From positions 831,001-895,000 of the forward strand of contig CP022585.1 of the NCBI GenBank assembly GCA_002243285.1: 64,000 bases of DNA, in the 5' to 3' direction. Within the stretch, counting starts at the first letter, position 1. Each line of letters begins with the position of its first letter. This document shows positions 34,996 to 59,747 of this stretch, piece by piece. This stretch comes from Candidatus Fluviicola riflensis. GTDB lineage: Bacteria; Bacteroidota; Bacteroidia; Flavobacteriales_D; Crocinitomicaceae. Under the pieces are notes generated by a model, which saw nothing but the letters and a program-made list of their open reading frames with translations, was not told the origin of the DNA and ran no database searches. Made by a program: the position numbers and the translations under genes.

Positions 34996-35106
34996 CTTGT
35001 CATTTTCGGTCATAGAATAGTATAAAAACGAGTTTGATTGAAACGTTTAGTGTAATCATTTAGCGATTTTTGCGTTACATTGGTTGCTTACTTTGAAATT
35101 CAACCT

Positions 35107-38805: not shown

Positions 38806-38822
38806 AATAAGGCACTTATACC
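38803..38822. repeat. target duplication (left) and left terminal inverted repeat of the transposon
   Basis: TAAAATAA at 38803-38810 is identical to 43035-43042. Then the perfect 12-bp terminal repeat GGCACTTATACC runs 38811-38822. Pairing with the right end continues imperfectly for about nine more bases (7 of 9). The first three bases of the duplication are the stop codon of the upstream gene. Confidence 0.92.
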
Positions 38823-38914
38823 ATACAAACAGTTTAAGTTATAACTGATTGGTAATGTGCTGTTTATGTGTTTGTAAATTAATTTCATACTTAGTTGATT
38901 AAAATTCACTGGAT

Positions 38915-39241
38915 ATGGAGAACCAAAATGTTACTGCTGGAGATGTACTTAAACACTATCTTGAAACTATAAGTAAAGAAAGTAAGATATTAGAGGATGA
39001 AATAGACCTGCTATTCTCTAATCAACCTACCCAATCTGAAATTCAATCTTTATTTAAGAAAGTCAAACAGTTTTATAAGGAATACTCCGGCACAGTTCCA
39101 AAACTGATCGCAAATATTGGTATGATGAATTTCAGATCATTTATTAATACGCTCGATATAGCCACAAAGTTGCAACAACATTTTGATTCTAAACTTCGTC
39201 AGTTTTTGGATGAAAATGCTGACTCCACTCTTTCCAGTTAG
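38915..39241 (+). CDS. small protein of unknown function in the transposon
   Basis: A 108-residue soluble protein that I do not recognise. It appears mostly alpha-helical, with charged helices (ISKESKILEDEIDLLF, IQSLFKKVKQFYKEY). It lies 92 bases inside the left end of the transposon, on the same strand as the transposase. AT-rich composition matches the element, so it is a passenger gene or accessory factor. Confidence 0.6.
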   Translation: MENQNVTAGDVLKHYLETISKESKILEDEIDLLFSNQPTQSEIQSLFKKVKQFYKEYSGTVPKLIANIGMMNFRSFINTLDIATKLQQHFDSKLRQFLDENADSTLSS

Positions 39242-39374
39242 TTGAATCTTCATTAGGCACTATGTAAACTTTAATGGGACAATTTAGAGTTATCATTAGT
39301 ATGTTTAACTCTATCATCTGATTTCTTATAAAATCAGCTACTACCATTTTTTGGTGGTCTGAATAATTTTCCAT
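39189..39374 (-). CDS. possible 61-residue protein, antisense in the transposon
   Basis: An ATG-started frame in the 213-base gap between two plus-strand genes, overlapping the tail of the first by 53 bases. The sequence looks protein-like (IKVYIVPNEDSTNWKEW) but shows no motif. Without homologs it could as well be a chance frame in AT-rich DNA. Confidence 0.25.
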   Translation of the reverse strand: MENYSDHQKMVVADFIRNQMIELNILMITLNCPIKVYIVPNEDSTNWKEWSQHFHPKTDEV

Positions 39375-39454
39375 CTTAAATAAATATTAGTTAAATTGTT
39401 TTAAGTTAAAGAATTTATTTTGTAACATTGTAGACGAATCAAAAATGTTATGTT

Positions 39455-39823
39455 ATGAATTATGTTCAAGGATTAAAGTTTAGGCGTGATGAGTTAAAGG
39501 CGGTTAAAGATGAACTCGAAGCTAAATTAAAACCTGTACTTAAAGAGTACGACGCGATTATGAACCTTCTTAAAGTTGTTGAAGCTGAAAAGTATGTTCA
39601 GAACGACTATCCTTTAAAAGGTAAATTACAAGACAAGGTTTTATTTGCTGTTAACGAACTAAAGAAAGCAACTGCCCACCAAGTTATTGATTTCATGCGC
39701 CAACATGAAAGCGATATTTCCGAATCTTCGGTTGTTGTCACCTGCTCCAAGCTGTTTAAAACAGGAATTCTGCAAAAGGATAATGACAAAGGAAGAGAAA
39801 GCATTTACACGATAAAGCTGTAA
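39455..39823 (+). CDS. coiled-coil plus winged-helix protein in the transposon
   Basis: A 122-residue protein. Residues 5-45 form a charged coiled coil (FRRDELKAVKDELEAKLKPV). Residues 60-122 look like a winged helix (LFAVNELKKATAHQVIDFMR; SSVVVTCSKLFKTGILQKDN), suggesting DNA binding. It precedes the transposase gene and has its own terminator, so it may regulate transposition or be cargo. Family not recognised. Confidence 0.65.
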   Translation: MNYVQGLKFRRDELKAVKDELEAKLKPVLKEYDAIMNLLKVVEAEKYVQNDYPLKGKLQDKVLFAVNELKKATAHQVIDFMRQHESDISESSVVVTCSKLFKTGILQKDNDKGRESIYTIKL

Positions 39824-39828
39824 TAAAA

Positions 39829-39854
39829 AATCCCCTTGCGCCAACAGGGGGATT
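39829..39854 (+). terminator. hairpin between the winged-helix gene and the transposase
   Basis: A 7-bp stem AATCCCC / GGGGATT (39829-39835 and 39848-39854) follows 6 bases after the stop of the winged-helix gene. The T-run is weak (TCTCTTC), so termination may be partial. Confidence 0.6.
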
Positions 39855-39899
39855 CTCTTCACTTTCTTAACTCAATAAAGAATCAAAATTGTAAATGTT

Positions 39900-40823
39900 A
39901 TGTCTTACAAATATACGATTTCCAACTTTAGAACTGATTTCCCTGACGACAACACCTGTCTTGATAAGGTGTTTTCTCTTCGCTACGGATCACAAACCCA
40001 TTGCACAAAATGTGATAACGTGTTTTCCTATACAAGAGTAAAAGGTAGACAATGCTATCAGTGTGATAAATGTTACTATCAAATATATCCTTGCGCCGGA
40101 ACTGTGTTTGAAAATACAAAGACTCCATTGTTGTATTGGTTCTACGCAATATATTTGTTTACAGCTTCAAAAAACGGTGTCTCCGCAAAAGAAATAGAAC
40201 GCCAACTAGGAGTTACTTACAAATGTGCTTGGCGAATGCTAAAGCATATCAGAATTTTAATGGGTTCGCAACAGGTAAATATGTTTGAGGAGTCATCAAT
40301 TGTAGAATGTGATGAAACTTTTGTAGGTGGCAAGAACATAAACAGACACAAGGACAAAAAAGTAGAAAAATCACAAGGTCGGTCTTTCAAAGATAAAACC
40401 CCTGTATTTGGAATGTTTGAACGCAAATCAAAACAGGTTAAAGCGTTTGTAGTTCCGGACACAAAAGGTAAAACTCTAAAACCAATCATTTACAGCCAAA
40501 TTGAGACAGGCGCAAACGTATATACTGACGAATGGATCGCTTACCGTGGCATAGATAAATACTACAACCATCAATTTGTTGACCACAGCAAAGGACAATA
40601 TGCTGACGGTGATAACTCAACCAACCGAATAGAAAACGTGTGGAGTTGCTTTAAACGAACAATAAAAGGAAGCTATATAAAGGTTTCACGTAAATACCTA
40701 CAACTATACGTTGATGAGTCTGTGTTCCGTTTCAACAACAGGAACAAACCTATTTTTTACGAACTCGTGAACCTTTTGGGGTTAGAACCGAATCAAGAAC
40801 TTTGTCGAACTCAGACTTTGTGA
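39900..40823 (+). CDS. IS1595-family (ISXO2-like) transposase
   Basis: A 307-residue DDE-type transposase. A zinc ribbon lies at the N-terminus (Cys35, Cys38, Cys55, Cys58). A helix-turn-helix-like segment (SAKEIERQLGVTYKCAWRML) follows at 95-115. The catalytic core is ISXO2-like: Asp138 in VECDETFVGGK, Asp210 in VYTDEWIAY, His229, and STNRIENVWSCFKRTIKG with Asn242 or Glu245 as third residue. All key residues are present, so the enzyme looks intact. Its last 74 bases overlap the antisense 51-residue gene. Confidence 0.93.
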   Translation: MSYKYTISNFRTDFPDDNTCLDKVFSLRYGSQTHCTKCDNVFSYTRVKGRQCYQCDKCYYQIYPCAGTVFENTKTPLLYWFYAIYLFTASKNGVSAKEIERQLGVTYKCAWRMLKHIRILMGSQQVNMFEESSIVECDETFVGGKNINRHKDKKVEKSQGRSFKDKTPVFGMFERKSKQVKAFVVPDTKGKTLKPIIYSQIETGANVYTDEWIAYRGIDKYYNHQFVDHSKGQYADGDNSTNRIENVWSCFKRTIKGSYIKVSRKYLQLYVDESVFRFNNRNKPIFYELVNLLGLEPNQELCRTQTL

Positions 40824-40905
40824 CTGGCTTAACTTGTTGTTTACGTTCTAGTTCCTCAAAGCCTTTCGTTAGTTCGTCTACTGACTTTGTTTTAGGCTTT
40901 TTCAT
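40750..40905 (-). CDS. 51-residue charged protein following the Xre regulator
   Basis: A short lysine- and glutamate-rich protein (KTKSVDELTKGFEELERKQQ, KPVTKSEFDKVLDSVLTPKG, ending VRKK) encoded on the minus strand. It starts 17 bases after the stop of the Xre gene, so the two likely form one operon. Its 3' part is antisense to the end of the transposase gene. The composition looks like a real small protein, possibly an antitoxin-like or DNA-associated partner, but that is inference. Confidence 0.6.
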   Translation of the reverse strand: MKKPKTKSVDELTKGFEELERKQQVKPVTKSEFDKVLDSVLTPKGSRVRKK

Positions 40906-40922
40906 AGTACAAATGTATGGGA

Positions 40923-41240
40923 TTATTTTGATTTGGACTTTTCCCAGTTTATTGGGGTTGGCATCCTATTTTTCAAGTCGGCTTTCATGTTTCTCATGGT
41001 TTCAAGATAAAGTCGTTCTTCGTCGTCCTCTAACAACAAGAATTCAACACTAGTTTCTAAAGCTTCACTGATCTTAAAAAGAGTTTTGATAGTTGGGTTA
41101 GTTCGTCCAGATTCAATTCTTCTGAGCGCGGAATCTTCTATGCCAATTAAAGTGGCTAACTCTATTTGCTTGATACCTTTTTGATTACGTAGGGACTGAA
41201 TGGTTTTTCCAATTCTTTTGATGTATTCGTCCTCGTTCAT
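40923..41240 (-). CDS. Xre-family helix-turn-helix regulator
   Basis: A 105-residue regulator with a Cro/C1-type helix-turn-helix at about 10-65 (IGKTIQSLRNQKGIKQIELA; IEDSALRRIESGRTNPTIKT). A charged tail (LLLEDDEERLYLETMRNMKA) follows. It is divergent from the lipoprotein gene at 41337. The spacer has an ATCAAAA / TTTTGAT pair (41260-41266 and 41292-41298) that could be its operator. It may control the passenger genes or the transposase. Confidence 0.88.
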   Translation of the reverse strand: MNEDEYIKRIGKTIQSLRNQKGIKQIELATLIGIEDSALRRIESGRTNPTIKTLFKISEALETSVEFLLLEDDEERLYLETMRNMKADLKNRMPTPINWEKSKSK

Positions 41241-41306
41241 TCAGTGAAGTTATCGCGAGATCAAAATAATTTTCAGAACATTTATGATCGGTTTTGATTT
41301 TTCTCC

Positions 41307-41314
41307 TACATTTG
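41307..41314 (+). promoter_or_regulatory. -7 element of the passenger lipoprotein promoter
   Basis: TACATTTG is a full TAnnTTTG match, 22 bases before the ATG at 41337. No good -33 box. It lies just after the possible Xre operator pair. Confidence 0.55.
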
Positions 41315-41336
41315 CTTTGTACACAAAACCAATAAC

Positions 41337-41723
41337 ATGAAAAAACTAATCTTGTTCACTGTGCTATTAGCACTCTTCACATACTCCTGCAAGAAAGACG
41401 AGAAGAAAGACAGGACTATCACCTTCGACTACCAATTAGCTGACATGGATCATTTTGATGTGTCAGTTAAAAAGAATGGTGACATCATGTACGGTTACTC
41501 TGACGAGAAGTACACAGCTTACCCGCAAGGTGATGGTACATATTTGATGGGTTCCACTGAGTTCAAAGCCAAGAAAGGTGACCAAATAGCTGTTTACGTA
41601 GTAGACAACTTTGGATCAAATGAGCCTGTTAGTTTCACACTCAAAGTGAATGGTTCAACAGTCTCCACCACTGACGTAAACTCAATGGAGTCTGCTATCA
41701 GCATATCCTATACAGTGGAATGA
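41337..41723 (+). CDS. passenger lipoprotein of unknown function
   Basis: A 128-residue lipoprotein. Its signal peptide ends in the lipobox FTYSC (Cys18), followed by a lysine-rich stretch KKDEKKD. The mature part looks like a small beta-sandwich (FDVSVKKNGDIMYGYSDEK; SFTLKVNGSTVSTTDVNSM). No family recognised. It starts a run of four same-strand genes inside the transposon; the next gene overlaps its stop (ATGA). Confidence 0.7.
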   Translation: MKKLILFTVLLALFTYSCKKDEKKDRTITFDYQLADMDHFDVSVKKNGDIMYGYSDEKYTAYPQGDGTYLMGSTEFKAKKGDQIAVYVVDNFGSNEPVSFTLKVNGSTVSTTDVNSMESAISISYTVE

Positions 41724-41905
41724 GCACAGTTGGTTGGACCGTTTTTGTTATAGTCTCTGTTGTCATGGTTGTTCCGGGGCTTATAATCACTTTTAGTGAA
41801 AACAAGGAAAAGATCAATACCTCCATCAAAACATGGTTGCCCATAGTATTATTGATTTGGCTTATAATAGGTTCGATATGGGTATTTTCTGACATGAAAA
41901 GCTAA
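41720..41905 (+). CDS. small two-helix membrane protein
   Basis: A 61-residue protein that is almost entirely two transmembrane helices (WTVFVIVSVVMVVPGLIITF and WLPIVLLIWLIIGSIWVF) joined by a charged loop. It overlaps the lipoprotein stop by four bases, which supports translation. Function unknown. Confidence 0.6.
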   Translation: MSTVGWTVFVIVSVVMVVPGLIITFSENKEKINTSIKTWLPIVLLIWLIIGSIWVFSDMKS

Positions 41906-41910
41906 TAATT

Positions 41911-42270
41911 ATGAAAGCATTACTAACTTCTATATTCCTAATTTTCTCATTTGTTTCAACCGCGCAAGATGATTATTACAAGGATATCTCAGCTTCACAA
42001 ATAGTTTCTGTAATAGATAAAGTAGGTTTCTCTCCAACCAAGATAACAAAAGACGTTAAGGCTTTTAAAATTGTCATCTTACAGTTAGGAACTAATGAAA
42101 TAAAACAAGTCAACATAGATAGTTGGTGGTTATGTAACAACCGAAAGGATGATAATTTCACCATATACAATATGCTTTATAAAGAAGTGACAAAGGAAAC
42201 CTTTGATTTATACTGTAAGGAGTTAATTTCCCTAATGGTTTGTGATGGAACAGCGACACAGACAAACTAG
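41911..42270 (+). CDS. exported passenger protein of unknown function
   Basis: A 119-residue protein with a signal peptide (1-18, FVSTAQ). The rest holds two cysteines and aromatic residues (NIDSWWLCNNRKDDNF) but no known motif. It lies five bases after the membrane protein gene, so it is probably part of the same passenger operon. Confidence 0.6.
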   Translation: MKALLTSIFLIFSFVSTAQDDYYKDISASQIVSVIDKVGFSPTKITKDVKAFKIVILQLGTNEIKQVNIDSWWLCNNRKDDNFTIYNMLYKEVTKETFDLYCKELISLMVCDGTATQTN

Positions 42271-42290
42271 ATGTTAATCTTTCTATCTGA

Positions 42291-43001
42291 ATGAATATTC
42301 TTAACTTAGTGAGTAAATCTCACATAATGAAGTATATAAACATACTACACTATTTTCTAACCATTGGGCTTATCATTACTGTCATTGTCCTTCTATTGAA
42401 CCAAAACAAAATACAAAACCAACTATCTGATGACTCAGTAATCGAAAGCGTCAATTATCCGTTTGAAGAAAGAAATATGACGCTTATCCTCACTCTTATC
42501 GGAGTTGGGTTTGGTCTTTTCGCCCTCTTTACTTTTGGTGGGGTTAAACAACTCTTTGATGCAAAGGTTGAAGAAGTAAACGAACGCTATAACAAAGCAA
42601 AAAAGGATAATGAGACTCATCATAAAAGAATGAATAGGTTAGAGAAAGATTTGAACTATCAGCTGGCTGAAATACTATATGACAAAGCGTCTACACTAAG
42701 AAGTGGTGATTCGCCAAGTGTTTATGTTATGGTTGCTCTAGCAGCATGTGAAAAATACACACAAGTCCTGTCAGACTGCGAGGATGAGAATCAAAAATTT
42801 ATAGGGGGTGTCAATACCAGAGTTAGTAGTTTACTTGATGAAATAACAAAAGTAATTGGTATAACCAACAGAGATGTTGAAACTTCCAGTATTGATTTCG
42901 ATAGGTTTAAAAAGAGAGTCGAAAGAATATCAGCCCAGCTTAACAGTATCGACTTCGCTAAGTTTAATCATATTGTAAGTAAAATCAAGATTATTGATTA
43001 G
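42291..43001 (+). CDS. membrane-anchored coiled-coil passenger protein
   Basis: A 236-residue protein with two N-terminal transmembrane helices (about 18-37 and 63-84). A coiled coil follows at 85-130 (AKVEEVNERYNKAKKDNETH), then a helical domain. No family recognised. An ATG at 42327 is an alternative start that trims 12 residues. It is the last gene before the right end of the transposon. Confidence 0.6.
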   Translation: MNILNLVSKSHIMKYINILHYFLTIGLIITVIVLLLNQNKIQNQLSDDSVIESVNYPFEERNMTLILTLIGVGFGLFALFTFGGVKQLFDAKVEEVNERYNKAKKDNETHHKRMNRLEKDLNYQLAEILYDKASTLRSGDSPSVYVMVALAACEKYTQVLSDCEDENQKFIGGVNTRVSSLLDEITKVIGITNRDVETSSIDFDRFKKRVERISAQLNSIDFAKFNHIVSKIKIID

Positions 43002-43022
43002 ATTTTACGCACATGTTTTTAA

Positions 43023-43042
43023 GGTATAAGTGCCTAAAATAA
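43023..43042. repeat. right terminal inverted repeat and target duplication (right)
   Basis: GGTATAAGTGCC (43023-43034) is the reverse complement of the left end. It is followed directly by TAAAATAA (43035-43042). The start codon of paralog 2 follows after one base. Confidence 0.92.
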
Positions 43043-43043
43043 T

Positions 43044-46000
43044 ATGAAGCAACGAAGTTTACTGCTCTTATTTCACCTCATTACAGTCACCGTTATTGCC
43101 CAACGGCCCGATTCGGTGCAGGTAAACGGACAATGGTATTTTGTGTATCCCTTGCAGGAAAAAGTCGAGCCGACCAATGCCATTTTAGATAAACTGGATC
43201 TTTCGGAAGCACAGTTTAAGTTATTTAAAGAATGGAAACTAAGCAACGATCCACGCCTGAAATTATCCAAACACACCATGATCGATTCGCTGAACCGGGA
43301 ATTGATTCGCATAAAAATCACAGTGTCGAAAGAACAGAACAGGTATGAGTGGCGCAATGCGACCGAGGCTCCGAAAGTCAGCTGGCCAATGCTCCTGATG
43401 CGAAAAAAACACTGGTACAGAAAGTATCCCGAATTAATGCTTGTCCAGGATATCGATCAAAATCGCGACCTCGTTCCGGCAGTGCAGAATTTACCTAACG
43501 GAAAATACATCCAGTATTTCGAACCGGTGCTGAGCTACCACGGATGGAAAAAAAGTTCAGAACTTCCAACCAGGGTTGCAGCTATATTCGAGCTGAAAAA
43601 CAACCTGCCCGAAAATGAATTCACACGCTTTAACTACAAAGGTGATACTGTGCGTCATGGTTATTTCACTGACGGATTAAAAGAACGGCAATGGACCGTG
43701 AGCGATAGAGGAAGCCGGTTCCATACCGGAATTCATGGTTTGAGAGAAAACAGAACATTTTATAATTACAATTCTTCCATTCGGGTCAACCTGGAAAAAG
43801 GTATTCTCGAAGGAACGTTTTACAAATGGATTTCAGGTTCTTATCAACCGGTCGGCTACTTTAAAAACGGTTACGCCGATAGTATCTGGAAAACAGATCC
43901 TTATTACGCCTGGCGGACCAACGAAATAATTGACTACAATTCAATATTGGACAGTAATTACAATCAACCGCTTTCACTTGCAATTTTGCCATCAGTAAGT
44001 CTTTACAAACGATATGACGGGTTTGATTTCAAAGAGAAAAAAAACAGATACCTCACAATCTCGTATTTTAATTTACAGGAAGATCGCTACGAACAAGGTG
44101 TGCCTGCTTTACCGTTATCCGGGTTTGAGGATTTGTTTAGCATGCCAATGCGTACCGGTTTGAACGGCTTAAGAACGGTGAATGAAACCGATGGTTATAA
44201 TAGAAATACCGGTCAGGTCAATTTTCACGGTACCAAACAAATTTTCGAAGGAACCAGGCTCACCGAAAGATATACTTATCTGCCCGGTTTAGGCACGATT
44301 GTATATGCACGCTTCTTCAAAAACGGTGCGTTATTCGATACGCTTGGTTACGAGCCTCAAAACAAGTTGTTTGTACACAATATATATGATGTCAACGGAA
44401 AATTGTTTCAAACAACCACTTATAATACTTCCGGCGGACAGGTGCAGCAAATCAATTATTTCAAGCAAAAAGAAAAGAAGGTTCGCTATAAAAAACCAGT
44501 CGTCATCGACGGATTTGAAACTGAATATGTTTATTATTTCGGAACGAAACTTCGTGAGTGGGAAGGCAGCCGGGTTGTAGACGGAAAACAGTATACCCGG
44601 ATCAGATGGACGAAAACAAAAAGACGGCGTTCCGAAACGTACAAAGATCTGAGCGATTCTTTGGAGCATCAAGTGACGTTTAACCGAAAAGGGGAAATAG
44701 CTTTGGATGAGGCGTCGTTGCAGATAGGAATTGATTCGTCCCGAGGCTACAACAAAGGAATTTATGCAACACGCAATACGGTACCATATAAAGAAATGAA
44801 ACTGATTGAGGAGAACGAAAACGTTACAGATTCACCTATTGTGTTGACCTGCGCTGATCAACCTTATTCAGGACGAATGAGTATCAATTTTTCGAAGAAT
44901 AGGCTGAAACTGGATGATCAGCCAGCCGACGGATTAAACTGGACTATTCCATCAGATGAATCTTCTCGAAGCCTGCGCAAACAATTCATGGGGCTTTATA
45001 CGCCTGATGATTATTATCCGATGTCAATGAGTGAGCGGCCTTATTACCTCAGAGATAAAGATTTCGAAACCCCGTTCTCACATGTGATGGACAGACTGTT
45101 TCACGATCAGTTCAATTTGTACCTGGTAGATCGAATGGAAGGCGAATTTCAAAACGGACAACCTTCTGGTAACTGGAACTATTACAACAAAAAAGGTGAA
45201 TTGGTCTTTACGTTGAATTTTGTGAACGGCTTGCCAAATGGAGATGTTATCGTTTTTGGAGAATATGTTGGTCCTAATAAGTACGACCGGAAATACCACC
45301 AGGATGAACCCTATTATACATTCCTGTTTTCGAAAGATGCTCCGAAAAATTACCGCAGGGAAACCTATCATTTTACCGATGGTAAGTTAGACGGCCCCAA
45401 AGTAACGTATACGGCAATGGGTGACACGCTCGAGATTGAAGTTTACAAAGCTGGTCAACTTCACGGGAAAACCTGGCGACGTGAGGACGACGATGTGTTC
45501 CTGGAGGAATACCAAAATGGGAAACTCCATGGGTTGGTGCTCGAGGGCAGGCTGGAATACAACGAGAGGGATGAGGTTGTGATGGATACCTTGAGTTTTG
45601 CGCATTATAAAAATGACCTTTTACATGGCGATTGTTATTTTGAGTTCTATGAAAACAATTATGATCGCGAAGATTATGGCGATGAAAGAAGAGGATGGGG
45701 TTATAACCGTAGTTATAAGCAGGCACTGAAAACAGTAAAATGTCAGTTTCACGAAGGATTGCCTCATGGTAATTATGTTCAGCGGTTGGAGTCCGGTGAG
45801 ACTGAATTTGCTGTATCACTCGCCAAAGGAAAAGTTGACACGCTGACGTTTTTCGAAAATGGTGCTCCTTCTTATTACTATGATTACGTTGAACAAGAGC
45901 GATTGCAGCCTTATTCATTTTCCGATTCTGCTCGTTTAGGCTTTAAAACACGCTTTTTCCGTGATGAGAATCTGGAGAGCAAGTTTAGTAACGGGCTTAT

Positions 46001-46739
46001 AGTTGAGTACGGAAACAATGCTGACGAACTTAACATTTATGGCGGTTACAGGAATCCTACAATCGAAGATTACAAACAAGGGCGTTTCACCAAACTGTAT
46101 CCCAACGGAAATATTGCCCGTCGTGGTTATCGAATCGGGGATAAGAATTGGGGCGACTGGGATTTTTACAACTACAACGGCCAACGTTTGTATTCCATCG
46201 ATTATGGAACAATGACAATTGTCATGCATGGGATTACTTATACTGAATCGGAGATAAAAGGTGTGTATATAGAATACGACAGCCTTGGCGAACAAATTTG
46301 CAGAGGAGCATTGATCGAGGAGCTGGAAAAATACGATTGCGCGCATTCCGATTATTATGCCATTCGCCAGTTCATTATTATCGAAGACAGGCAAGATGAA
46401 TACGAGCGAACCAATGGCCCCATGAAGTATTACTTCGACAACGGAATGCTCATGAGCGAAGGAACCTTGAAAAACGGAATGCCGGATGGTGTTTGGATGT
46501 TTTACACGCCCGACGGCAAACTCACCCGGATCGGGAAATACGTCAACGGCAAAAAAGAAGGCCGCTGGCTTAAAGGCGATCTCGGCGATAAGAAATACAT
46601 CGGTGAAATTTGCCTGAACCCCGATGATCCGTTACTGGATTTTCACATAGCCGAACTGGAACGCCTGCGCGATGTGGAAATTGTGATTTATAAAAACGGC
46701 ACGGCTCAAATCGAGCAACAATACGAGGTAACAGATTAA
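43044..46739 (+). CDS. large secreted MORN-like repeat protein, paralog 2
   Basis: A 1231-residue paralog of the 35107 protein. A signal peptide covers about 1-19. RPDSVQVNGQWYFVYPL follows as in the paralog, and the C-terminal part also aligns (YYFDNGMLMSEGTLKNGMPD, GVWMFYTPDGKLTRIGKYVN, GKKEGRWLKGDL). Repeats of the MORN/YwqK type run through much of it. Function unknown. Before the transposon arrived it started six bases after paralog 1, so it was probably the second gene of an operon; it now needs read-through or a promoter in the element's right end. Confidence 0.8.
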   Translation: MKQRSLLLLFHLITVTVIAQRPDSVQVNGQWYFVYPLQEKVEPTNAILDKLDLSEAQFKLFKEWKLSNDPRLKLSKHTMIDSLNRELIRIKITVSKEQNRYEWRNATEAPKVSWPMLLMRKKHWYRKYPELMLVQDIDQNRDLVPAVQNLPNGKYIQYFEPVLSYHGWKKSSELPTRVAAIFELKNNLPENEFTRFNYKGDTVRHGYFTDGLKERQWTVSDRGSRFHTGIHGLRENRTFYNYNSSIRVNLEKGILEGTFYKWISGSYQPVGYFKNGYADSIWKTDPYYAWRTNEIIDYNSILDSNYNQPLSLAILPSVSLYKRYDGFDFKEKKNRYLTISYFNLQEDRYEQGVPALPLSGFEDLFSMPMRTGLNGLRTVNETDGYNRNTGQVNFHGTKQIFEGTRLTERYTYLPGLGTIVYARFFKNGALFDTLGYEPQNKLFVHNIYDVNGKLFQTTTYNTSGGQVQQINYFKQKEKKVRYKKPVVIDGFETEYVYYFGTKLREWEGSRVVDGKQYTRIRWTKTKRRRSETYKDLSDSLEHQVTFNRKGEIALDEASLQIGIDSSRGYNKGIYATRNTVPYKEMKLIEENENVTDSPIVLTCADQPYSGRMSINFSKNRLKLDDQPADGLNWTIPSDESSRSLRKQFMGLYTPDDYYPMSMSERPYYLRDKDFETPFSHVMDRLFHDQFNLYLVDRMEGEFQNGQPSGNWNYYNKKGELVFTLNFVNGLPNGDVIVFGEYVGPNKYDRKYHQDEPYYTFLFSKDAPKNYRRETYHFTDGKLDGPKVTYTAMGDTLEIEVYKAGQLHGKTWRREDDDVFLEEYQNGKLHGLVLEGRLEYNERDEVVMDTLSFAHYKNDLLHGDCYFEFYENNYDREDYGDERRGWGYNRSYKQALKTVKCQFHEGLPHGNYVQRLESGETEFAVSLAKGKVDTLTFFENGAPSYYYDYVEQERLQPYSFSDSARLGFKTRFFRDENLESKFSNGLIVEYGNNADELNIYGGYRNPTIEDYKQGRFTKLYPNGNIARRGYRIGDKNWGDWDFYNYNGQRLYSIDYGTMTIVMHGITYTESEIKGVYIEYDSLGEQICRGALIEELEKYDCAHSDYYAIRQFIIIEDRQDEYERTNGPMKYYFDNGMLMSEGTLKNGMPDGVWMFYTPDGKLTRIGKYVNGKKEGRWLKGDLGDKKYIGEICLNPDDPLLDFHIAELERLRDVEIVIYKNGTAQIEQQYEVTD

Positions 46740-46974: not shown

Positions 46975-47463
46975 ATGCGCTATTTAATCTTACTGCCATT
47001 CATGTTTTTAGTGTTTACTGCCTGTCAAAAGACAGACCGGGAAAAGCTTAATGGTATGTGGCTTATCAGCGAGATCAGGGTCAACGGTGAACAAATGTTT
47101 TCCACAGAGAAGGCCGAACAGCAAAAAATAATCGATCGTGTGATCAACGAACAAATGGCGCAACTGCCACCCGAAGCACAGGGTCAGGAAGCAATGATGC
47201 GCAATTTGTTTAGCCGACAAATGGCAATCAGCGCCAAAACCACGCTTGAATTCAAAGAAGATGGTACTTTTGTTTCTATTCGTTATAATGGCAGCAGCCA
47301 GGTAGAAACAACCGGACAAATCACCCTTGATGAAGCGAAGAAAGAAATCAAAATGAAAAGTGATTCCGATGAGCAATTCACCTACGAATTGAAAGAGGAG
47401 CTACTAAAGCTTTCGAATTATTCAGACGGTGAGAAAATTGAATTGTCCTTCCGGCGAAAATAA
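46975..47463 (+). CDS. small lipoprotein, lipocalin-like pattern (family member 1)
   Basis: A 162-residue lipoprotein with lipobox FTAC (Cys16). It begins with DREKLNGMWLISEIRVNGEQ, the KLxGxW opening typical of lipocalin-like Bacteroidota lipoproteins. EQQKIIDRVINEQ and the closing LSFRRK relate it to the two genes that follow. A central helix holds AQLPPEAQGQEAMMRNLF. Ligand unknown. Confidence 0.7.
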   Translation: MRYLILLPFMFLVFTACQKTDREKLNGMWLISEIRVNGEQMFSTEKAEQQKIIDRVINEQMAQLPPEAQGQEAMMRNLFSRQMAISAKTTLEFKEDGTFVSIRYNGSSQVETTGQITLDEAKKEIKMKSDSDEQFTYELKEELLKLSNYSDGEKIELSFRRK

Positions 47464-47535
47464 AGAAGGTCGCCATCGTCTTGAATCTTTTTGAAACAAG
47501 CGCTCAAAATCGGCTCCTTTTAACGAGGAAAACTG

Positions 47536-47543
47536 TATATTCG
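47536..47543 (+). promoter_or_regulatory. -7-like element before the 47555 lipoprotein
   Basis: TATATTCG differs from TAnnTTTG by one base and lies 11 bases before the ATG, rather close; a start at MRYILIV, three codons on, would space it better. Confidence 0.35.
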
Positions 47544-47554
47544 CCAATATTTAA

Positions 47555-48043
47555 ATGAAAATCATGCGTTATATCTTAATTGTAGTTGCTGCGTTGACAG
47601 TATTAGCGAGTTGTTCTAAGAGCGATAAAGAATTGTTATCAGGTACTTGGGGAATTCAGGAAATGAAAAAAGACGGCGAAGTGGCAATGTCACTTGATCC
47701 GAAAGAACAACAAAAAATTATTGACAAAGCGTGGGCGAAAGACGGCGCTATGATGGAGCAAATGGGGATGGACAAAGCGGCACTTGCAAAAAGCATGGAA
47801 GAGCAGTCTAAAAACCTTGCGAAAGTGACTTTTGTTTTCGGTGAAAACGGTAAAGTAAAAGTTTCTGCTAACGATGGTAAATCGAAAGACGTTTTCTCCC
47901 CTTACACAATGAACGAAGAGAAAAAAGAAATCACGATCGAAGAAGAAAACAAAGATAAATTGACGTACACGTACACAATTTCTGACGAGCAATTGATCTT
48001 GAAACAGAAAAAAGACGAATTGATCTTTAAACGTAAGTCTTAA
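47555..48043 (+). CDS. small lipoprotein, lipocalin-like pattern (family member 2)
   Basis: A 162-residue lipoprotein, lipobox LASC (Cys20). It has the KELLSGTWGIQEMKKDGEV opening and the segment AMSLDPKEQQKIIDKAW shared with the next gene. KVTFVFGENGKVKVSANDGK and the closing ELIFKRKS also match. It is clearly a tandem duplicate of 48144. A strong terminator follows. Confidence 0.75.
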   Translation: MKIMRYILIVVAALTVLASCSKSDKELLSGTWGIQEMKKDGEVAMSLDPKEQQKIIDKAWAKDGAMMEQMGMDKAALAKSMEEQSKNLAKVTFVFGENGKVKVSANDGKSKDVFSPYTMNEEKKEITIEEENKDKLTYTYTISDEQLILKQKKDELIFKRKS

Positions 48044-48075
48044 TAAATAAGACAAAAGCGTTGAAAAACGAATTT

Positions 48076-48113
48076 AAAGTCCGATTCGCCTCTGGTGGAT
48101 CGGACTTTTTTTT
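48076..48113 (+). terminator. intrinsic terminator after family member 2
   Basis: A perfect 10-bp stem AAAGTCCGAT / ATCGGACTTT (48076-48085 and 48099-48108) is followed by T8. Confidence 0.92.
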
Positions 48114-48116
48114 GTT

Positions 48117-48130
48117 ATTTGTGGTACGAT
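48117..48130 (+). promoter_or_regulatory. promoter-proximal block before the 48144 gene
   Basis: ATTTGTGGTACGAT includes a -7-like TTATTTG end. The identical 14 bases occur before the 48716 gene (48674-48687), which suggests shared control. Confidence 0.5.
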
Positions 48131-48143
48131 AAAGAATCAATTC

Positions 48144-48650
48144 ATGAAAAACCAGATACTTACTTTTCTGCTATTATTTGTTGCAACAGCTGCCATTGCA
48201 CAGGCTGACTCTGACGATAAAACACGCCTGCGGGGTTCATGGGGAATAGTTGAAATGGCGAAAGACGAAGATCTTGCGATGTCGCTTGACCCCCAAAAAC
48301 AGCAAAAAATCATTGATGATGCGTGGGTGCAAGACAGCGTTATGATGCTCGAAATGGGAATGAACAAAGCAATGCTTACAAAAAACATGGAAGAGCAGTC
48401 GGAATTGCTCTCGAAAGTCACGTTTGTTTTTGATAAAAAAGGCAAAGTAACCGTTTCGCCTAACGATGGTGTCTCGGCAGACGTTTTCTCACCTTACACA
48501 CTAAACGAGGCGAAAAAAGAACTGACAATTGAAGAAGAAAATGGAGATAAATTGGTCTACAATTATCTGATTACTGATAATGAACTGATCCTGAAACGGG
48601 AAAGTGATATGTTGATTTTTAAACGCAAATCAACCATCAATAAGCATTAA
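48144..48650 (+). CDS. secreted, non-lipidated member of the small lipoprotein family (member 3)
   Basis: A 168-residue paralog of 47555: LRGSWGIVEMAKDEDLAMSL, QQKIIDDAWVQDSVMMLEMG and the ending LIFKRKS align closely. Its signal peptide ends AAIAQA with no cysteine, so it should be released by signal peptidase I rather than anchored by lipid. It thus probably differs in location from member 2. Confidence 0.75.
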   Translation: MKNQILTFLLLFVATAAIAQADSDDKTRLRGSWGIVEMAKDEDLAMSLDPQKQQKIIDDAWVQDSVMMLEMGMNKAMLTKNMEEQSELLSKVTFVFDKKGKVTVSPNDGVSADVFSPYTLNEAKKELTIEEENGDKLVYNYLITDNELILKRESDMLIFKRKSTINKH

Positions 48651-49397: not shown

Positions 49398-50102
49398 TTA
49401 TTTTTCATACTGCAAATAAATCCCATCCTTAAACGCCGTCCACACACAAGCACGTTGCCCGCACGATTTCAATGCGCTGTTCGCCCAAGAATTGCAGGTA
49501 TACATGAGTCCGTAAGAACGATTGGCTTCGAAAAAGTAATGACGGCTTCCATACGTGTGTTTTTCAATCAACTGATATTCCCCATCCTTTTTAGAAAAAC
49601 TGCCTTTCACATAAGCAATGAGCGCTTTGTATTGTTTGGGTGAAAGTGACAAACGAATCGTTTGTTTGTCGGAAACATCAGGTTCAGCTCGTTGCACCAA
49701 ATGCATCGCCGAACTTCCCAAATGAAACGTTGCTTTCAGCGCAACACTCACTTTCAGATCCGCCCAATCTTCGGTTTCAAGGAAAAAACCTTTGTCACCC
49801 CAGCCAATAGCCAAATGCGTATAAACCGAATCGGTAAGTAAACTATCGTTAAGTCCTAATTCATGCGGCCAGTTGATATACTCATTTTCCAGCGGAACCA
49901 CCAAATCCGTGTGAATTCCACTCGAAGTAATGTAAACTGTTGTATGCTCTTTCCCCGATTCGTCACTTGCCAGCGGCCCCACACCAATCCGGGATAATAC
50001 CATAGCACAACACCAAAAGATAAGCAACAACCCGAAAAAACATTCGAGAAAGATGCGTATCGTTCGCCAGGTTATTCTTGAAGCTTTTTTCAGGACTTCC
50101 AT
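49398..50102 (-). CDS. DUF2459/TIGR02117-like protein
   Basis: A 234-residue protein with one N-terminal transmembrane helix (about 15-38). The rest matches the DUF2459 (TIGR02117) pattern: VYITSSGIHTDLVVPL, HLAIGWGDKGFFLETEDWAD and the late CNSWANSALKSCG with a conserved Cys. Members look like NlpC-type or amidase folds, but no activity is established. Confidence 0.8.
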   Translation of the reverse strand: MEVLKKASRITWRTIRIFLECFFGLLLIFWCCAMVLSRIGVGPLASDESGKEHTTVYITSSGIHTDLVVPLENEYINWPHELGLNDSLLTDSVYTHLAIGWGDKGFFLETEDWADLKVSVALKATFHLGSSAMHLVQRAEPDVSDKQTIRLSLSPKQYKALIAYVKGSFSKKDGEYQLIEKHTYGSRHYFFEANRSYGLMYTCNSWANSALKSCGQRACVWTAFKDGIYLQYEK

Positions 50103-50158
50103 GAAGCTAAAAATAGAAAAAGGAATTGATTTGAAGGAATTGGCTATAGTATGATGAT

Positions 50159-51406
50159 CTAAATCTCAATTTCAGGAACCTCTTCCTCTTCTACAAAGTT
50201 TACGTATTTGTAAAGCGGCTTTAAACCGGTGTTCTCATTCGGTCTGTTTTTCTGCAGTTTTTCAATACACTTTAGCCAAATTGGAACTGTTATGGGAATT
50301 TTGCCTTGTTGGTAATCTCCGCGCAGACGAAGGCCCCAATCATCACTAATACAGCGGATACCGATGGTGAAATCGTCAGTAATCGCGATGAAAAAGCCAC
50401 CTGTATTTCCTGATCCGAACCCGGCAAAGTTCCCTATAAAATCAGGGGCATTGGGGAAATGACGATGAACGACTGTTCCACGCCCCAAATGTGTATAATA
50501 ATCCAGTAGATGCAGCATTTCTTCGGCCGTTTGTTCATTCATTATCCTTGTTGAATGTACCTTGCGACGATATAATTCCTTGCCTTTAAAATCGACAATG
50601 TGATTGATGACTGTTGGTTCTTTTCTGATTCCTTTATTGTAAAAAGCCGACCAGGTCTTTGTTAAATCAAGAAGAGATAATTGAGCATCAAATAAAAAGA
50701 TTGAATTGGAATAATTCTCGACATGCTCTCGGAATAACATATACAATTGAGTATACGCCAGTTTCTGAGAATATCGCTTGGCTAAACCTATTGATGGAGT
50801 TCCACCGAACGCAATCCCGAATGTTCTCAGGAAGCTTCGGTTGATACTCGAATCAGGAACCATATCGTCATAGTCACCACCCGGGATTTGTTTCATCTGA
50901 GGATAACGATTATGGGGTGTGAATTCTTGTTGCATTGCCAGCGTATAGAGCAAGGTTTTGTTCATTCCACCTATTGTACCGCGGTTAGTTACAAAATCTC
51001 CTGAAGGGCCACTTTTACTGGAATAATGTACTACCACCTGACCTGTTTTATTGTCAATTGCCACTACACCTGCATTCAGAAATTGATTGAGCGCCTTCAA
51101 TGAATCCATCAACGCTTTTGTTTCATGATGTTCCCATTCAATTCGCGGATAAATAGAATCTTGCAACCGGATTACTTCGTTGGTTAGAATGTCTGATAAA
51201 CCTGGTTCCAGCGATGTATACACCTTAATATCTGCCGAATCGATGCGTTCCTGACTCAATAAATTCGGAAGTTTCCGGTAAATGAGGTTCAAATGCGTAG
51301 AATCGGTAATGAGCGTACCATCCGCATAATAGCAAAGTACTTTTGGACGTTGGATGCAACAGGATGTAACAACCAATCCAATTAAGAAAGCAAAGACCCA
51401 TTTCAT
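50159..51406 (-). CDS. lipoprotein resembling a penicillin-binding transpeptidase, catalytic residues lost
   Basis: A 415-residue lipoprotein (lipobox VTSC, Cys16). It keeps class-A PBP landmarks: VYTSLEPGL near 62-70, VVAIDNKTGQV near 115-124, and SxN as SSINRSFLRTFG (Ser187, Asn189). The SxxK serine is Gly147 (GGMNK), and the KTG lysine is replaced by Asn (GSGNTGG, near residue 335). So it is expected to be catalytically dead and may only bind glycan strands or peptides. Its start overlaps the stop of the M1/M61-like peptidase gene upstream (ATGA), so the two are coupled. Confidence 0.75.
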   Translation of the reverse strand: MKWVFAFLIGLVVTSCCIQRPKVLCYYADGTLITDSTHLNLIYRKLPNLLSQERIDSADIKVYTSLEPGLSDILTNEVIRLQDSIYPRIEWEHHETKALMDSLKALNQFLNAGVVAIDNKTGQVVVHYSSKSGPSGDFVTNRGTIGGMNKTLLYTLAMQQEFTPHNRYPQMKQIPGGDYDDMVPDSSINRSFLRTFGIAFGGTPSIGLAKRYSQKLAYTQLYMLFREHVENYSNSIFLFDAQLSLLDLTKTWSAFYNKGIRKEPTVINHIVDFKGKELYRRKVHSTRIMNEQTAEEMLHLLDYYTHLGRGTVVHRHFPNAPDFIGNFAGFGSGNTGGFFIAITDDFTIGIRCISDDWGLRLRGDYQQGKIPITVPIWLKCIEKLQKNRPNENTGLKPLYKYVNFVEEEEVPEIEI

Positions 51407-52908
51407 TTCTTCAACATCAAATAAGCTTCTTTAAAAACACTTTCCGTTTCGGTAAATTCCAATTGAGGAAAGCCATCCTCCGTTTGATTTAGAGCAATCC
51501 CGTCGGCCATTGTCAGTTTACTCCAATCAAAATCAACCCCCGAAATCACGTACTTCTGAAAAAAGTAACACCAATCTTCGCCGGTTTGTTGTTGAAGCAG
51601 GTCGAGAAACAATTCGTCGGTGAACAAAACCTCATTTTCCGTACAATGGATCAGCAGCGTGCGCATGAAATCATCCAATGACGTTTTTCCATTCGAGGAA
51701 ACCAGTAATTGCTGGTCCAGCCAAAAAGCGAAAAGAGTTCCTCTTCTGTAAGGCAGTTTTTCGATGTTGTAATTTGTCCAGAAATCGTCTTTGATCCGGT
51801 AATTTGGTTCATTTCTCTCCGGATTTATGTAATGCGCTTTCAACACATCTTCATTGAATTTAGCGCGCCATTCTTCCGGTGTAAGTGCTCCGTTGCGCAA
51901 TTGATTTTTGTAAGCGTAATAATCTGTAAAACCTTCACTGAACCAATAATTCAGCTCTTCGTGAGCCATGGTGATTTTTCCACCGATCCAATCGTGCATC
52001 ATTTCATGGTTGAAAATGTACTTGATCGTACCAAGGTCGTTGAAAGGGTTGTTGGTCGACTGAATCATGAATCCGTTGTAAATACGCGAACCATTGACAC
52101 TTTGTCCGGGATACATTATTGAATCGTTCGATGTAAGCGTCGGAGTCATGATCACGGTATAATAATCGAAATCCTGGTCGTTCCAGAAATCGCGCTGTGT
52201 GATCAATGTTCGTTGGAAAAGCGCAAGAAGCTGGTCGTCCTGAAAAGTTGTCCAGTTTCCGCGAATGGCGAAATACACTTTTTTGTTCTGGTGTTCAAAC
52301 GAATGAATGCGGTAATCGCCACCCACAAATAAAGTGTTGTAGAATTCGGTCCACAATTTCCCGTTGAATGACTGGTGCAGTTCCTGCGATCCGAGCATGT
52401 TGTGAATGGCAAATTCTTTCGGGAAACCAATCCAGTCGATCGTTGCGTCCATTTCAGGATCTTCTTTACCGCTTTCAAAAACGGCTTCGGGCATCACAAA
52501 TAAACTTTGTCCCAATGCATGAAAAAAAGTTGGTTGCAGCCGCGGCCGCGCAAAAATATTCGGTGAATCGCCCGGGTAATCCTGCCGAACGGTATAACTG
52601 AATGAAACAGTTGTTGCCGTTGGATGATAGACCACTATGCGATTACTATCGGGCACCATCCTGAAGCGATAACCTTTACCAGCGCCTTTGAAATTCGAAA
52701 TAGATTGAAACAAATTCTCTTCGCCCCAGATTTCATTGGCATAATAAAAGTAACTGGAATCTGCCGGTTTACTGAGAGTAGTTGTAACCGTAATCGTTAA
52801 ACCCGATTTGGGCATGTTTTTGGCGTAATTCACCTGGTATTTCACAGTTTGTGCCGCGTTGGAAAACAACGAGAACAGACTTAGCATAAAGGTCAATGCA
52901 ATCTTCAT
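51403..52908 (-). CDS. M1/M61-like zinc metallopeptidase, exported
   Basis: A 501-residue secreted gluzincin. A signal peptide covers about 1-19. The zinc motif HEMMH is at 301-305, and the third ligand is Glu325 in WFSEGFTDYY. The spacing after HExxH is 19 residues; M1 enzymes have 18, and the LWF/FSEGFT wording resembles M61, so family assignment is open. No PDZ domain follows. It forms an operon with the PBP-like lipoprotein. Confidence 0.8.
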   Translation of the reverse strand: MKIALTFMLSLFSLFSNAAQTVKYQVNYAKNMPKSGLTITVTTTLSKPADSSYFYYANEIWGEENLFQSISNFKGAGKGYRFRMVPDSNRIVVYHPTATTVSFSYTVRQDYPGDSPNIFARPRLQPTFFHALGQSLFVMPEAVFESGKEDPEMDATIDWIGFPKEFAIHNMLGSQELHQSFNGKLWTEFYNTLFVGGDYRIHSFEHQNKKVYFAIRGNWTTFQDDQLLALFQRTLITQRDFWNDQDFDYYTVIMTPTLTSNDSIMYPGQSVNGSRIYNGFMIQSTNNPFNDLGTIKYIFNHEMMHDWIGGKITMAHEELNYWFSEGFTDYYAYKNQLRNGALTPEEWRAKFNEDVLKAHYINPERNEPNYRIKDDFWTNYNIEKLPYRRGTLFAFWLDQQLLVSSNGKTSLDDFMRTLLIHCTENEVLFTDELFLDLLQQQTGEDWCYFFQKYVISGVDFDWSKLTMADGIALNQTEDGFPQLEFTETESVFKEAYLMLKK

Positions 52909-57800: not shown

Positions 57801-59747
57801 TCAGGGCTTATAATGCAACGTCTCATCCATGGAACCCACAGCAACCGGATGGTAATTCTTTCGCGCTTCTTTATAAACACTCAGTGCCCATTGCAAATCT
57901 TCGCCTTTGGCAGCGTAATATTCTTCATAAATCGGCCAGATGAATTTTCGTCGTCCGGTTTTCAGGAGCATTTTTTTGATTTGTGGTCGCGGATCTGTGT
58001 ACCCAGAACGAATGCTCAGGCAGAACCATTCCGTGGCAACTTCAGCATTTCCCCAATTCTTAAAATCGAGTTTTTCATCGATCAACGCCAAGCGTTCAGG
58101 ATCCATTTTCTTCGGTAACTGGCGAATAAATACCTGCCATTCCTGTGGCGTGTATTGATCTCTGGCCAAAGCCGGTTCCTGTTTTTTGCCTTTCTTTTTC
58201 TTCGGTTTCTTGAAAATGTCTTTCCCGGCAGCAAATTGATCTGCCAACAACTGTACTTTTTCAAAACGCGGTGAAGTAATGGAGATACAATTTTTTGGTA
58301 AACCCGGTTCATACAACCACGCGTCGACGTTGAATTTGATGTTATTCGGTTTCAGTAATTTCTCCGTGAGGTATTTTTTAAACTGCTCGGTAGTAAGTGT
58401 TTGGAACTGATGGTCTTTAAAATAACCTTTCAGGAATTCGTCGAAACGTCTTCTGCCGAAATCTCGTTCCAGTGTTTTCAGGAAAAACGCACCTTTTACG
58501 TAAGCGATATCAGTCATTCCGTCGTCGGGATTCCTGCCGTTGAGACTCAGTTTCAAATGCGTGTCTTTCTCCTGGCCATTCTTCATGAACTTGTCTATCT
58601 CCACTTCCAGTTCCTGGAACTCGATCAGCGCTAACATATCGGCGGTTTCTTTACCGTATAATTCCTCCATGATGCGGTTCTCGAAATAAACCGTAAAACC
58701 TTCGTTGAGCCAGAAATCGTCCCAGGTCGCGTTGGTTACTAAGTTTCCTGACCACGAGTGCGCCAATTCATGTGCGATGACCGAAACGGCACTTCTATCT
58801 CCTGCCAATAAAGTAGGGCTCGCAAACGTCAGGCGTGGATTTTCCATTCCACCGAACGGGAAAGAATATGGAAGAACAATCACATCGTATTGATCCCATT
58901 TATAAGGACCATACAAGTTTTCGGCGGCGGTGATCATTTTGTCCAGATCGGTGAATTCCCAGGCCGCTTTTCCAACCATTTCAGGTTCTGAGTAAACACC
59001 GCAATTTTTGCCCAGCGAACGATATTCCAGGTTTCCGACTGCCAACGCAATCAGGTAAACAGGAATGGGTTGTTTCATTTCGAAATGATACTTGCCGTCT
59101 TCTGACCGTTCCTTCGGATTGGAAGCACTCATGAGCGCCATCAAATCTTTCGGAACTGTTACGTCAGCCGAATAAGTAATACGATTCGCAGGTGTTCCTT
59201 GCACGGGAATCCATGTACGCGTTAAAATCGCCTGGCCCTGCGTATATAAATAAGGATGCTTTTTTCCTGCAGTCAATGAAGGATCAAGCCAATCCAATGC
59301 ACCGGCATCTTCCGTTGTTTTGTAATAAATATTGATGTATTTGGTATCCCGGTTGATTTTTACGCTCAATGGCTGGCCGATAAATTCTTTTTTGGTACCG
59401 ATGATAAAATCGGTTTCTTTCTCATTGCCTTTTTTGCCAAGCGTTACTTTTTGGATTTCAGGTCCGTTGATGTCAAAAATAGCCGTATCAGTATTTTTTA
59501 ATTGTTCCATCGTATGACGCGCAACACCATAAATGGTTTTGTTATCGAAGTTCACATCCAGCTCCAAATCGATGTGCTTGGTTCTGATTTCGTTGGTATT
59601 GGAAAATGAATGGGCGTCCTCAATCGAAACATTTCCGGTAACATCCGCCTGGTCGTCTGCTACATTGCTGTCAGGTGCAGAATCACATGAAGCAACGAAG
59701 AAAAGAGATATGGTCGAAATGACCGCTATAAGTGAAAATTTATTCAT
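57801..59747 (-). CDS. M1 aminopeptidase lipoprotein, leukotriene-A4-hydrolase-like
   Basis: A 648-residue lipoprotein (lipobox VASC, Cys21). It has the substrate motif FGGMENPRLTF and the zinc motif HELAH (His326, Glu327, His330) with Glu349 in FWLNEGF, 18 residues on, as in M1. The C-terminal 190 residues match the LTA4H-type helical domain. It likely trims peptides in the periplasm or at the outer membrane. Confidence 0.92.
   Translation of the reverse strand: MNKFSLIAVISTISLFFVASCDSAPDSNVADDQADVTGNVSIEDAHSFSNTNEIRTKHIDLELDVNFDNKTIYGVARHTMEQLKNTDTAIFDINGPEIQKVTLGKKGNEKETDFIIGTKKEFIGQPLSVKINRDTKYINIYYKTTEDAGALDWLDPSLTAGKKHPYLYTQGQAILTRTWIPVQGTPANRITYSADVTVPKDLMALMSASNPKERSEDGKYHFEMKQPIPVYLIALAVGNLEYRSLGKNCGVYSEPEMVGKAAWEFTDLDKMITAAENLYGPYKWDQYDVIVLPYSFPFGGMENPRLTFASPTLLAGDRSAVSVIAHELAHSWSGNLVTNATWDDFWLNEGFTVYFENRIMEELYGKETADMLALIEFQELEVEIDKFMKNGQEKDTHLKLSLNGRNPDDGMTDIAYVKGAFFLKTLERDFGRRRFDEFLKGYFKDHQFQTLTTEQFKKYLTEKLLKPNNIKFNVDAWLYEPGLPKNCISITSPRFEKVQLLADQFAAGKDIFKKPKKKKGKKQEPALARDQYTPQEWQVFIRQLPKKMDPERLALIDEKLDFKNWGNAEVATEWFCLSIRSGYTDPRPQIKKMLLKTGRRKFIWPIYEEYYAAKGEDLQWALSVYKEARKNYHPVAVGSMDETLHYKP

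What the first reader, a model, noticed from the sequence alone, without database searches (positions are those of the whole stretch)
50159..52908. Catalytically dead PBP-like lipoprotein coupled to a zinc peptidase
The lipoprotein keeps PBP landmarks, including SxN at 187-189, but the SxxK serine is Gly147 and the KTG lysine is Asn. Its gene is coupled (ATGA) to an M1/M61-like peptidase whose HExxH-to-Glu spacing is 19, not 18. A peptidoglycan-sensing or adaptor role for the pair is possible.
Basis: partly seen in the sequence, partly recalled or inferred. Interest (0 to 1): 0.53.

Follow-up and report, generated by a model that had tools for sequence, protein, structure and literature searches.

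The report
Dead cell-wall enzyme turned lipoprotein
This gene makes a membrane-tethered relative of the enzymes that cross-link the bacterial cell wall, but the parts needed for the reaction are gone, so it probably works by binding something; it belongs to a small, patchily distributed family, and its pairing with the neighbouring protease gene is not conserved.

Summary
The 415-aa lipoprotein is homologous to the transpeptidase (TP) half of class A PBPs: 92 bits against an HMM of 75 catalytic TP domains, and its AlphaFold model matches PBP1A at Z 27. The nucleophile is Gly147; Lys150 is kept.

It belongs to a small family of dead PBPs: 8 of 240 Crocinitomicaceae genomes, and only its own genome in a sample of 395 from the phylum. 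Three Fluviicola members give omega 0.06-0.13, though dS is saturated.

The pairing with the M61-like peptidase is not conserved: in sister genome G010 the gene is cleanly absent at the ATGA junction, and no other member was seen beside this peptidase. Four Fluviicola members do sit directly upstream of a different HExxH protein: suggestive only. The HExxH-to-Glu spacing of 19 is normal for this peptidase group.

Most likely a non-catalytic, periplasmic PBP-derived binding protein; partner unknown.

The parts
50159..51406 (-). Dead PBP-derived lipoprotein, 415 aa: signal peptide and Cys16, N-terminal linker segment (about 22-105), TP-like domain (about 106-390). Gly147 in place of the SxxK serine (Lys150 kept), Phe327 in place of the KTG lysine.
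51403..52908 (-). Secreted M61-like zinc peptidase, 501 aa, HEMMH at residues 301-305 with Glu 19 residues further on. Upstream gene of the ATGA-overlapping pair.
   Evidence: (PDB 7xyo_A, E 4e-19 over 51-457)
51403..51406 (-). ATGA: stop of the peptidase gene overlapping the start of the lipoprotein gene; also close to the boundary at which the sister genome G010 lacks the gene (homology resumes at 51419).
49398..50102 (-). DUF2459 / TIGR02117 protein, 234 aa, downstream neighbour and syntenic in G010. Context only, probably not part of the system.
50137..51418 (.). 1282-bp stretch absent from G010, which has an unrelated 328 bp here

Best explanation
The gene encodes an intact pseudo-PBP: a class A PBP derivative that lost the glycosyltransferase domain, has a lipid anchor at the N-terminus, and lost the acylation machinery. 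Because the catalytic serine is gone it should neither cross-link peptidoglycan nor bind beta-lactams covalently, so it most likely acts by non-covalent binding in the periplasm. The likeliest targets are the cell's own PBP1A or another class A synthase, through surfaces it inherited, or the peptidoglycan stem peptide, so that it tunes or tethers the synthesis machinery. This would be similar in kind, but not in descent, to OM-lipoprotein regulators such as LpoA/LpoB. The neighbouring peptidase is probably just co-transcribed in this lineage. SHOWN: homology, loss of motifs, family distribution, gene presence/absence, low omega in three members. INFERRED: lipidation, periplasmic location, binding function, partner.
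For: HMM of 75 catalytic class A TP domains: 92 bits, E 9e-30, residues 96-390; motif columns. AlphaFold model pTM 0.70, pLDDT 65; Foldseek top rows are PBPs, mostly PBP1b, E 2e-15 at best; VIA Z 27.4 to 3ue1_B, 318 aligned, model 21-395 against chain 27-729, i.e. passing over the GT51 domain. In the alignment of seven members the invariant residues (N119 G122 D247 L248 T251 G259 T347 G349 K396) include none of the catalytic positions. Six members fall on one side of a branch against 30 catalytic PBPs, SH-aLRT 94.5. Omega 0.06-0.13 among three Fluviicola members. Four ordinary PBP genes (open frames 634, 704, 803, 855 aa) are present in this genome and a matching set in G010, G012 and G013, so this one is supernumerary. 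No K-(D/E)2 or Q-A-(D/E)2 surface-export signal (abstract of PMC5080379) follows Cys16 (C-I-Q-R-P-K or C-C-I-Q-R-P-K), which suggests a periplasmic rather than surface location.
Against: There is no direct evidence of any binding partner. The model was built with class A PBP sequences in its alignment, so its fold is not independent of the homology. Stretches around the active site (132-136, 141-144, 171-201, 306-329, 332-336) have pLDDT under 50. dS is saturated (1.7-2.4), and no close orthologue of the window gene itself was found (one search found none), so selection on this copy is untested. The three short Fluviicola members show little TP similarity on their own (best domains 5.9, 3.6 and 1.0 bits; no PF00905 hit; hhalign of the trio probability 8.5). 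P0001 has an N-terminal helix and no lipobox. Patchy distribution fits an accessory role better than a core wall regulator. SH-aLRT 94.5 is below the starred level, and the branches are long.
Confidence: 0.45

Rival explanations
1. Functional pair: the pseudo-PBP presents, anchors or regulates a zinc metallopeptidase (adaptor or built-in inhibitor), with different peptidases recruited in different lineages.
For: ATGA overlap in the window. In G007, G009, G013 and at a contig edge in G002 the dead PBP lies directly upstream of an unrelated secreted ~475-aa HExxH protein. With five distinct loci and an assumed per-locus chance of 3-9%, two or more such neighbours would occur in 0.8-7% of cases (post hoc, rough).
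Against: G010 has the same peptidase without the dead PBP. The HEMCH protein occurs in 9 of 14 Fluviicola, and at 5 of these 9 no dead PBP was found at that locus. No HExxH frame of 100 aa or more in the loci held for G012, G022 and G399. The order differs: peptidase upstream in the window, downstream in the others. The two peptidases are unrelated by BLAST (E 0.34).
Confidence: 0.17
2. Accessory decoy or immunity-like factor: a dead copy of a PBP soaks up a toxin, inhibitor or phage/bacteriocin that recognises class A PBPs, which would explain sporadic presence with conserved fold but no active site.
For: Patchy presence (8 of 240 family genomes); clean presence/absence between sisters; low omega in three members; lost catalysis with retained TP core.
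Against: No toxin, phage or defence gene was identified beside it; no PADLOC match; divergence between members is large (18-23% identity to the window protein), more than expected for a mimic of one target.
Confidence: 0.12
3. Decaying remnant with no function.
For: All catalytic motifs lost; long branch (3.54); lost or never gained in G010; the G399 copy lies on two contig pieces and may be broken.
Against: 415-codon open frame with signal peptide here and open frames of 331-461 aa in the five other full-length members despite very high divergence; low omega in the Fluviicola trio.
Confidence: 0.13

Closest known systems
Class A penicillin-binding proteins (PBP1A type; TIGR02074, PF00912+PF00905)
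   Same: TP-domain homology over about 290 residues, same fold in the model, probably the N-terminal strand before GT51 (model residue 21 aligns with PBP1A residue 27).
   Different: No GT51 domain, no catalytic Ser, no KTG Lys, no SxN Asn; lipobox instead of a membrane helix; about half the length.
OM-lipoprotein activators of class A PBPs, LpoA/LpoB of E. coli
   Same: Non-catalytic lipoproteins of the wall compartment; similar proposed role only (recalled; PMC9593243 and PMC4632607 seen in a search listing).
   Different: No sequence or fold relation was tested or is claimed; no partner known here.
M61 aminopeptidases (PDB 7xyo) and M1 (PF01433), for the neighbouring peptidase
   Same: E 4e-19 over 51-457 to 7xyo_A; PF01433 and PF05299 just over their cut-offs; HExxH plus Glu.
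   Different: Spacing 19; I count about 24 in the 7xyo_A alignment shown and recall 18 as usual for M1.

Membership tests
Class A PBP | TP (PF00905) fold and homology | tested here: met
   29 bits against cut-off 22.1; 92 bits to 75-domain HMM; Z 27.4
Class A PBP | SxxK nucleophile serine | tested here: not met
   Gly147, highest posterior
Class A PBP | SxN motif | tested here: inconclusive
   Gap in HMM alignment; S213-Q214-K215 in MAFFT; neither alignment keeps the Asn
Class A PBP | KTG lysine | tested here: not met
   Phe327 or Gly331
Class A PBP | GT51 glycosyltransferase domain (PF00912) | tested here: not met
   No PF00912 match in the protein at E 1; the two PF00912 genes of G000 are elsewhere
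Class A PBP | Covalent penicillin binding | not testable with these tools
   Needs purified protein
Bacterial lipoprotein | Signal peptide with lipobox cysteine | tested here: met
   Residues 13-16 V-T-S-C read; no prediction program was run; lipidation itself not tested
LpoA/LpoB-type PBP activators | Homology to LpoA or LpoB and binding to a class A PBP | not tested
   No direct comparison was made; Pfam scan gave only PF00905
M61/M1 gluzincin (neighbour) | HExxH followed by a zinc-binding Glu | tested here: met
   HEMMH plus Glu after 19 residues

The most novel reading that the evidence does not exclude
A previously unnamed family of dead class A PBP lipoproteins in Crocinitomicaceae serves as a non-enzymatic regulator or decoy in the cell envelope and has been repeatedly placed beside zinc metallopeptidases, forming a pseudo-PBP/peptidase envelope module with interchangeable peptidases.
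Probability: 0.12. Interest if true: 0.68.

Novelty: new variant of a known kind. Interest (0 to 1): 0.42.

Why it matters
I found no description of a dead, lipid-anchored PBP in the papers I could search (searches returned nothing on such a protein). A pseudo-PBP kept in some genomes would suggest that the TP fold can be used purely for binding. If it touches PBP1A, it would give a tractable regulator of wall synthesis in Bacteroidota, where my two searches for class A PBP lipoprotein activators turned up nothing relevant.

Tried and rejected
Rejected: SxN at 187-189 and Asn334 as the KTG position (alignments). Rejected: spacing 19 as an anomaly. Rejected: strong recent foreign origin by composition; GC 0.409 is the sixth lowest of 33 ORFs of 200 aa or more. 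Rejected: remnant of the gene in G010 (tblastn best E 0.32). Rejected: homology of the two HExxH neighbours.

Led nowhere: single-protein scan of genome contigs (nothing found); PADLOC; Pfam, NCBIfam and PDB for the HEMCH protein; repeats around the locus. A profile of the N-terminal segments of six members matched full-length class A PBPs only weakly (best E 3e-5, Spirochaetes), so the claim that the N-terminal strand comes from before GT51 rests on the structure alignment. Literature: searches returned no paper; one search returned two (S. aureus), three that name both Fluviicola and penicillin-binding, three, a broad list; of all these I saw the search listings only. Of PMC5080379 I read the outline and abstract; PMC9593243 and PMC4632607 only in the search listing. 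The PF00905 genome search did not list the window gene among its four matches in G000, so that search is not a full census of divergent TPs.

Rows dropped: one search examined 15 of the 22 loci. The 75 catalytic domains were chosen by having GSxxKP and KTGT, so their motif content is by construction. The tree used 30 of those 75. G399 and G002 were left out of the HMMs and the tree because their copies are fragments. Of the HEMCH loci, L132 and L135 were not examined for an adjacent dead PBP.

Full report
The locus. On the minus strand of the window, a 501-aa peptidase gene (52908-51403) overlaps a 415-aa lipoprotein gene (51406-50159) by ATGA, followed by a DUF2459 gene (50102-49398). The window's genome is in the same genus as G012, whose contig (length 651605) corresponds to Fluviicola chungangensis MAH-3; NCBI places that species in Crocinitomicaceae, Flavobacteriales.

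What the lipoprotein is. Pfam gives PF00905 (E 8e-7) and NCBIfam PBP1A (TIGR02074, E 8e-16, far below its curated cut-off). BLAST against the genome's own 838-aa PBP1A gives 26% over residues 100-387, E 7e-15. An HMM from 75 catalytic class A TP domains scores 92 bits over 96-390. PDB sequence search is weak (best E 0.016). The AlphaFold model (pTM 0.70, pLDDT 65; 15 sequences, 13 of them class A PBPs, so the fold is not independent of them) matches class A PBPs in Foldseek (best E 2e-15) and VIA-align (3ue1_B Z 27.4, rmsd 3.4, 318 aligned; model 21-395 on chain 27-729). The chain range means that the GT51 domain is passed over, consistent with excision of GT51 from a class A ancestor while the N-terminal strand stayed; a sequence profile of that N-terminal segment does not show this by itself. 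A second model, of the F. chungangensis member (pTM 0.64), also matches PBPs but with low TM-scores, 0.36-0.50 by query length.

The active site. SxxK: Gly147 replaces Ser, Lys150 stays. SxN: gap by HMM, S213-Q214-K215 by MAFFT; the S-I-N at 187-189 is not it. I could not inspect model coordinates, so a substitute Ser/Lys pair in the cleft is not formally excluded.

The family. Profiles of the family found dedicated members (no full-length PBP frame) in 8 of 240 Crocinitomicaceae genomes: G000, G002, G007, G009, G012, G013 (6 of 14 in the genus), G022 and G399 (14 of 240 genomes matched at E 1e-10, and the six others are hits in full-length PBP frames of 834-868 aa). In 395 genomes across the phylum only the window's own was a dedicated hit (3 matched; two are frames of 755 and 838 aa). 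In seven aligned members the invariant positions include none of the catalytic residues. The profile of six members matches the TP profile with probability 98.6, while the Fluviicola trio alone gives only 8.5, so the trio's link to PBPs runs through the other members. On a tree the six members stand apart from 30 catalytic PBPs with SH-aLRT 94.5; branches are long and attraction cannot be excluded. Omega among G007, G009 and G013 is 0.06-0.13 with saturated dS.

The neighbours. The sister genome G010 (about 82-85% DNA identity in the flanking blocks) has the DUF2459, peptidase and valyl-tRNA synthetase genes in the same order but no PBP-like gene: homology stops at 50136 and resumes at 51419, with 328 unrelated bases in G010 and no trace of the gene. 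Full-length relatives of the peptidase occur in G010 (78%), G058 (48%), G044 (47%), G040 (31%) and G021 (26%) among 99 genomes; none of these five genomes had a dedicated member. In G007, G009 and G013 the dead PBP lies directly upstream of a secreted ~475-aa HExxH protein, and in G002 a fragment lies at a contig edge before the same protein. That HExxH family is present in 9 of 14 Fluviicola and 13 of 240 family genomes; in the other five Fluviicola no dead PBP was found at the locus. No HExxH frame was found near the G012, G022 or G399 copies in the DNA held. A rough, post hoc chance estimate for HExxH neighbours at two of five distinct loci is 0.8-7%. I take the pairing as suggestive, not shown.

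The peptidase. It is M61-like (7xyo_A E 4e-19), with the spacing of 19 shared by all five relatives in which the motif script found a match (window, G010, G058, G044, G040), out of 19 loci given to it; the G021 relative gave no match.

Cell wall background. G000 has four PF00905 matches (frames 634, 704, 803, 855 aa) and two PF00912 genes, the same numbers as G010, G012 and G013, so the dead PBP is an addition to a normal set.

Mechanism. With no nucleophile, a binding role is the most economical reading; Lys150 and the TP core remain. The absence of the surface-export signal described in PMC5080379 (abstract seen) after Cys16 suggests that it faces the periplasm. Which partner it binds is not known; PBP1A and peptidoglycan are the first candidates because the surfaces are inherited from a class A PBP. 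Rivals and tests are given in their sections.

Noticed in passing
L082:3742-4087 (G010): The interval that replaces the gene in the sister genome contains an open tail ending LSAGIYYMELNNLVNKIVVQH*, resembling a type IX secretion C-terminal domain (recalled resemblance): perhaps a remnant of another gene at a turnover spot.
   Followed up: partly
L080:3033-4463, L079:3122-4549, L081:5203-6684: Secreted ~475-aa HExxH (HEMCH) protein family in 9 of 14 Fluviicola with no Pfam, NCBIfam or significant PDB match; a candidate undescribed metallopeptidase family.
   Followed up: partly
window 46975-48650: Three tandem small lipoprotein or secreted paralogues of 162-168 aa with similar sequence.
   Followed up: no
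window 35080-46739: Two large proteins of 1241 and 1231 aa with near-identical N-terminal motifs (RPDSVQVNG.WYFVYP) flank a gene at 39900-40823 that looks like an IS1595-type transposase (recalled).
   Followed up: no
window 57801-59747: A second HExxH protein (HELAH, 648 aa, lipoprotein-like start), probably an M1 aminopeptidase (not scanned).
   Followed up: no
L128/L133 1-340 (G002) and L049, L078 (G399): Fragmentary copies of the dead PBP at contig edges; whether they are intact cannot be told.
   Followed up: partly
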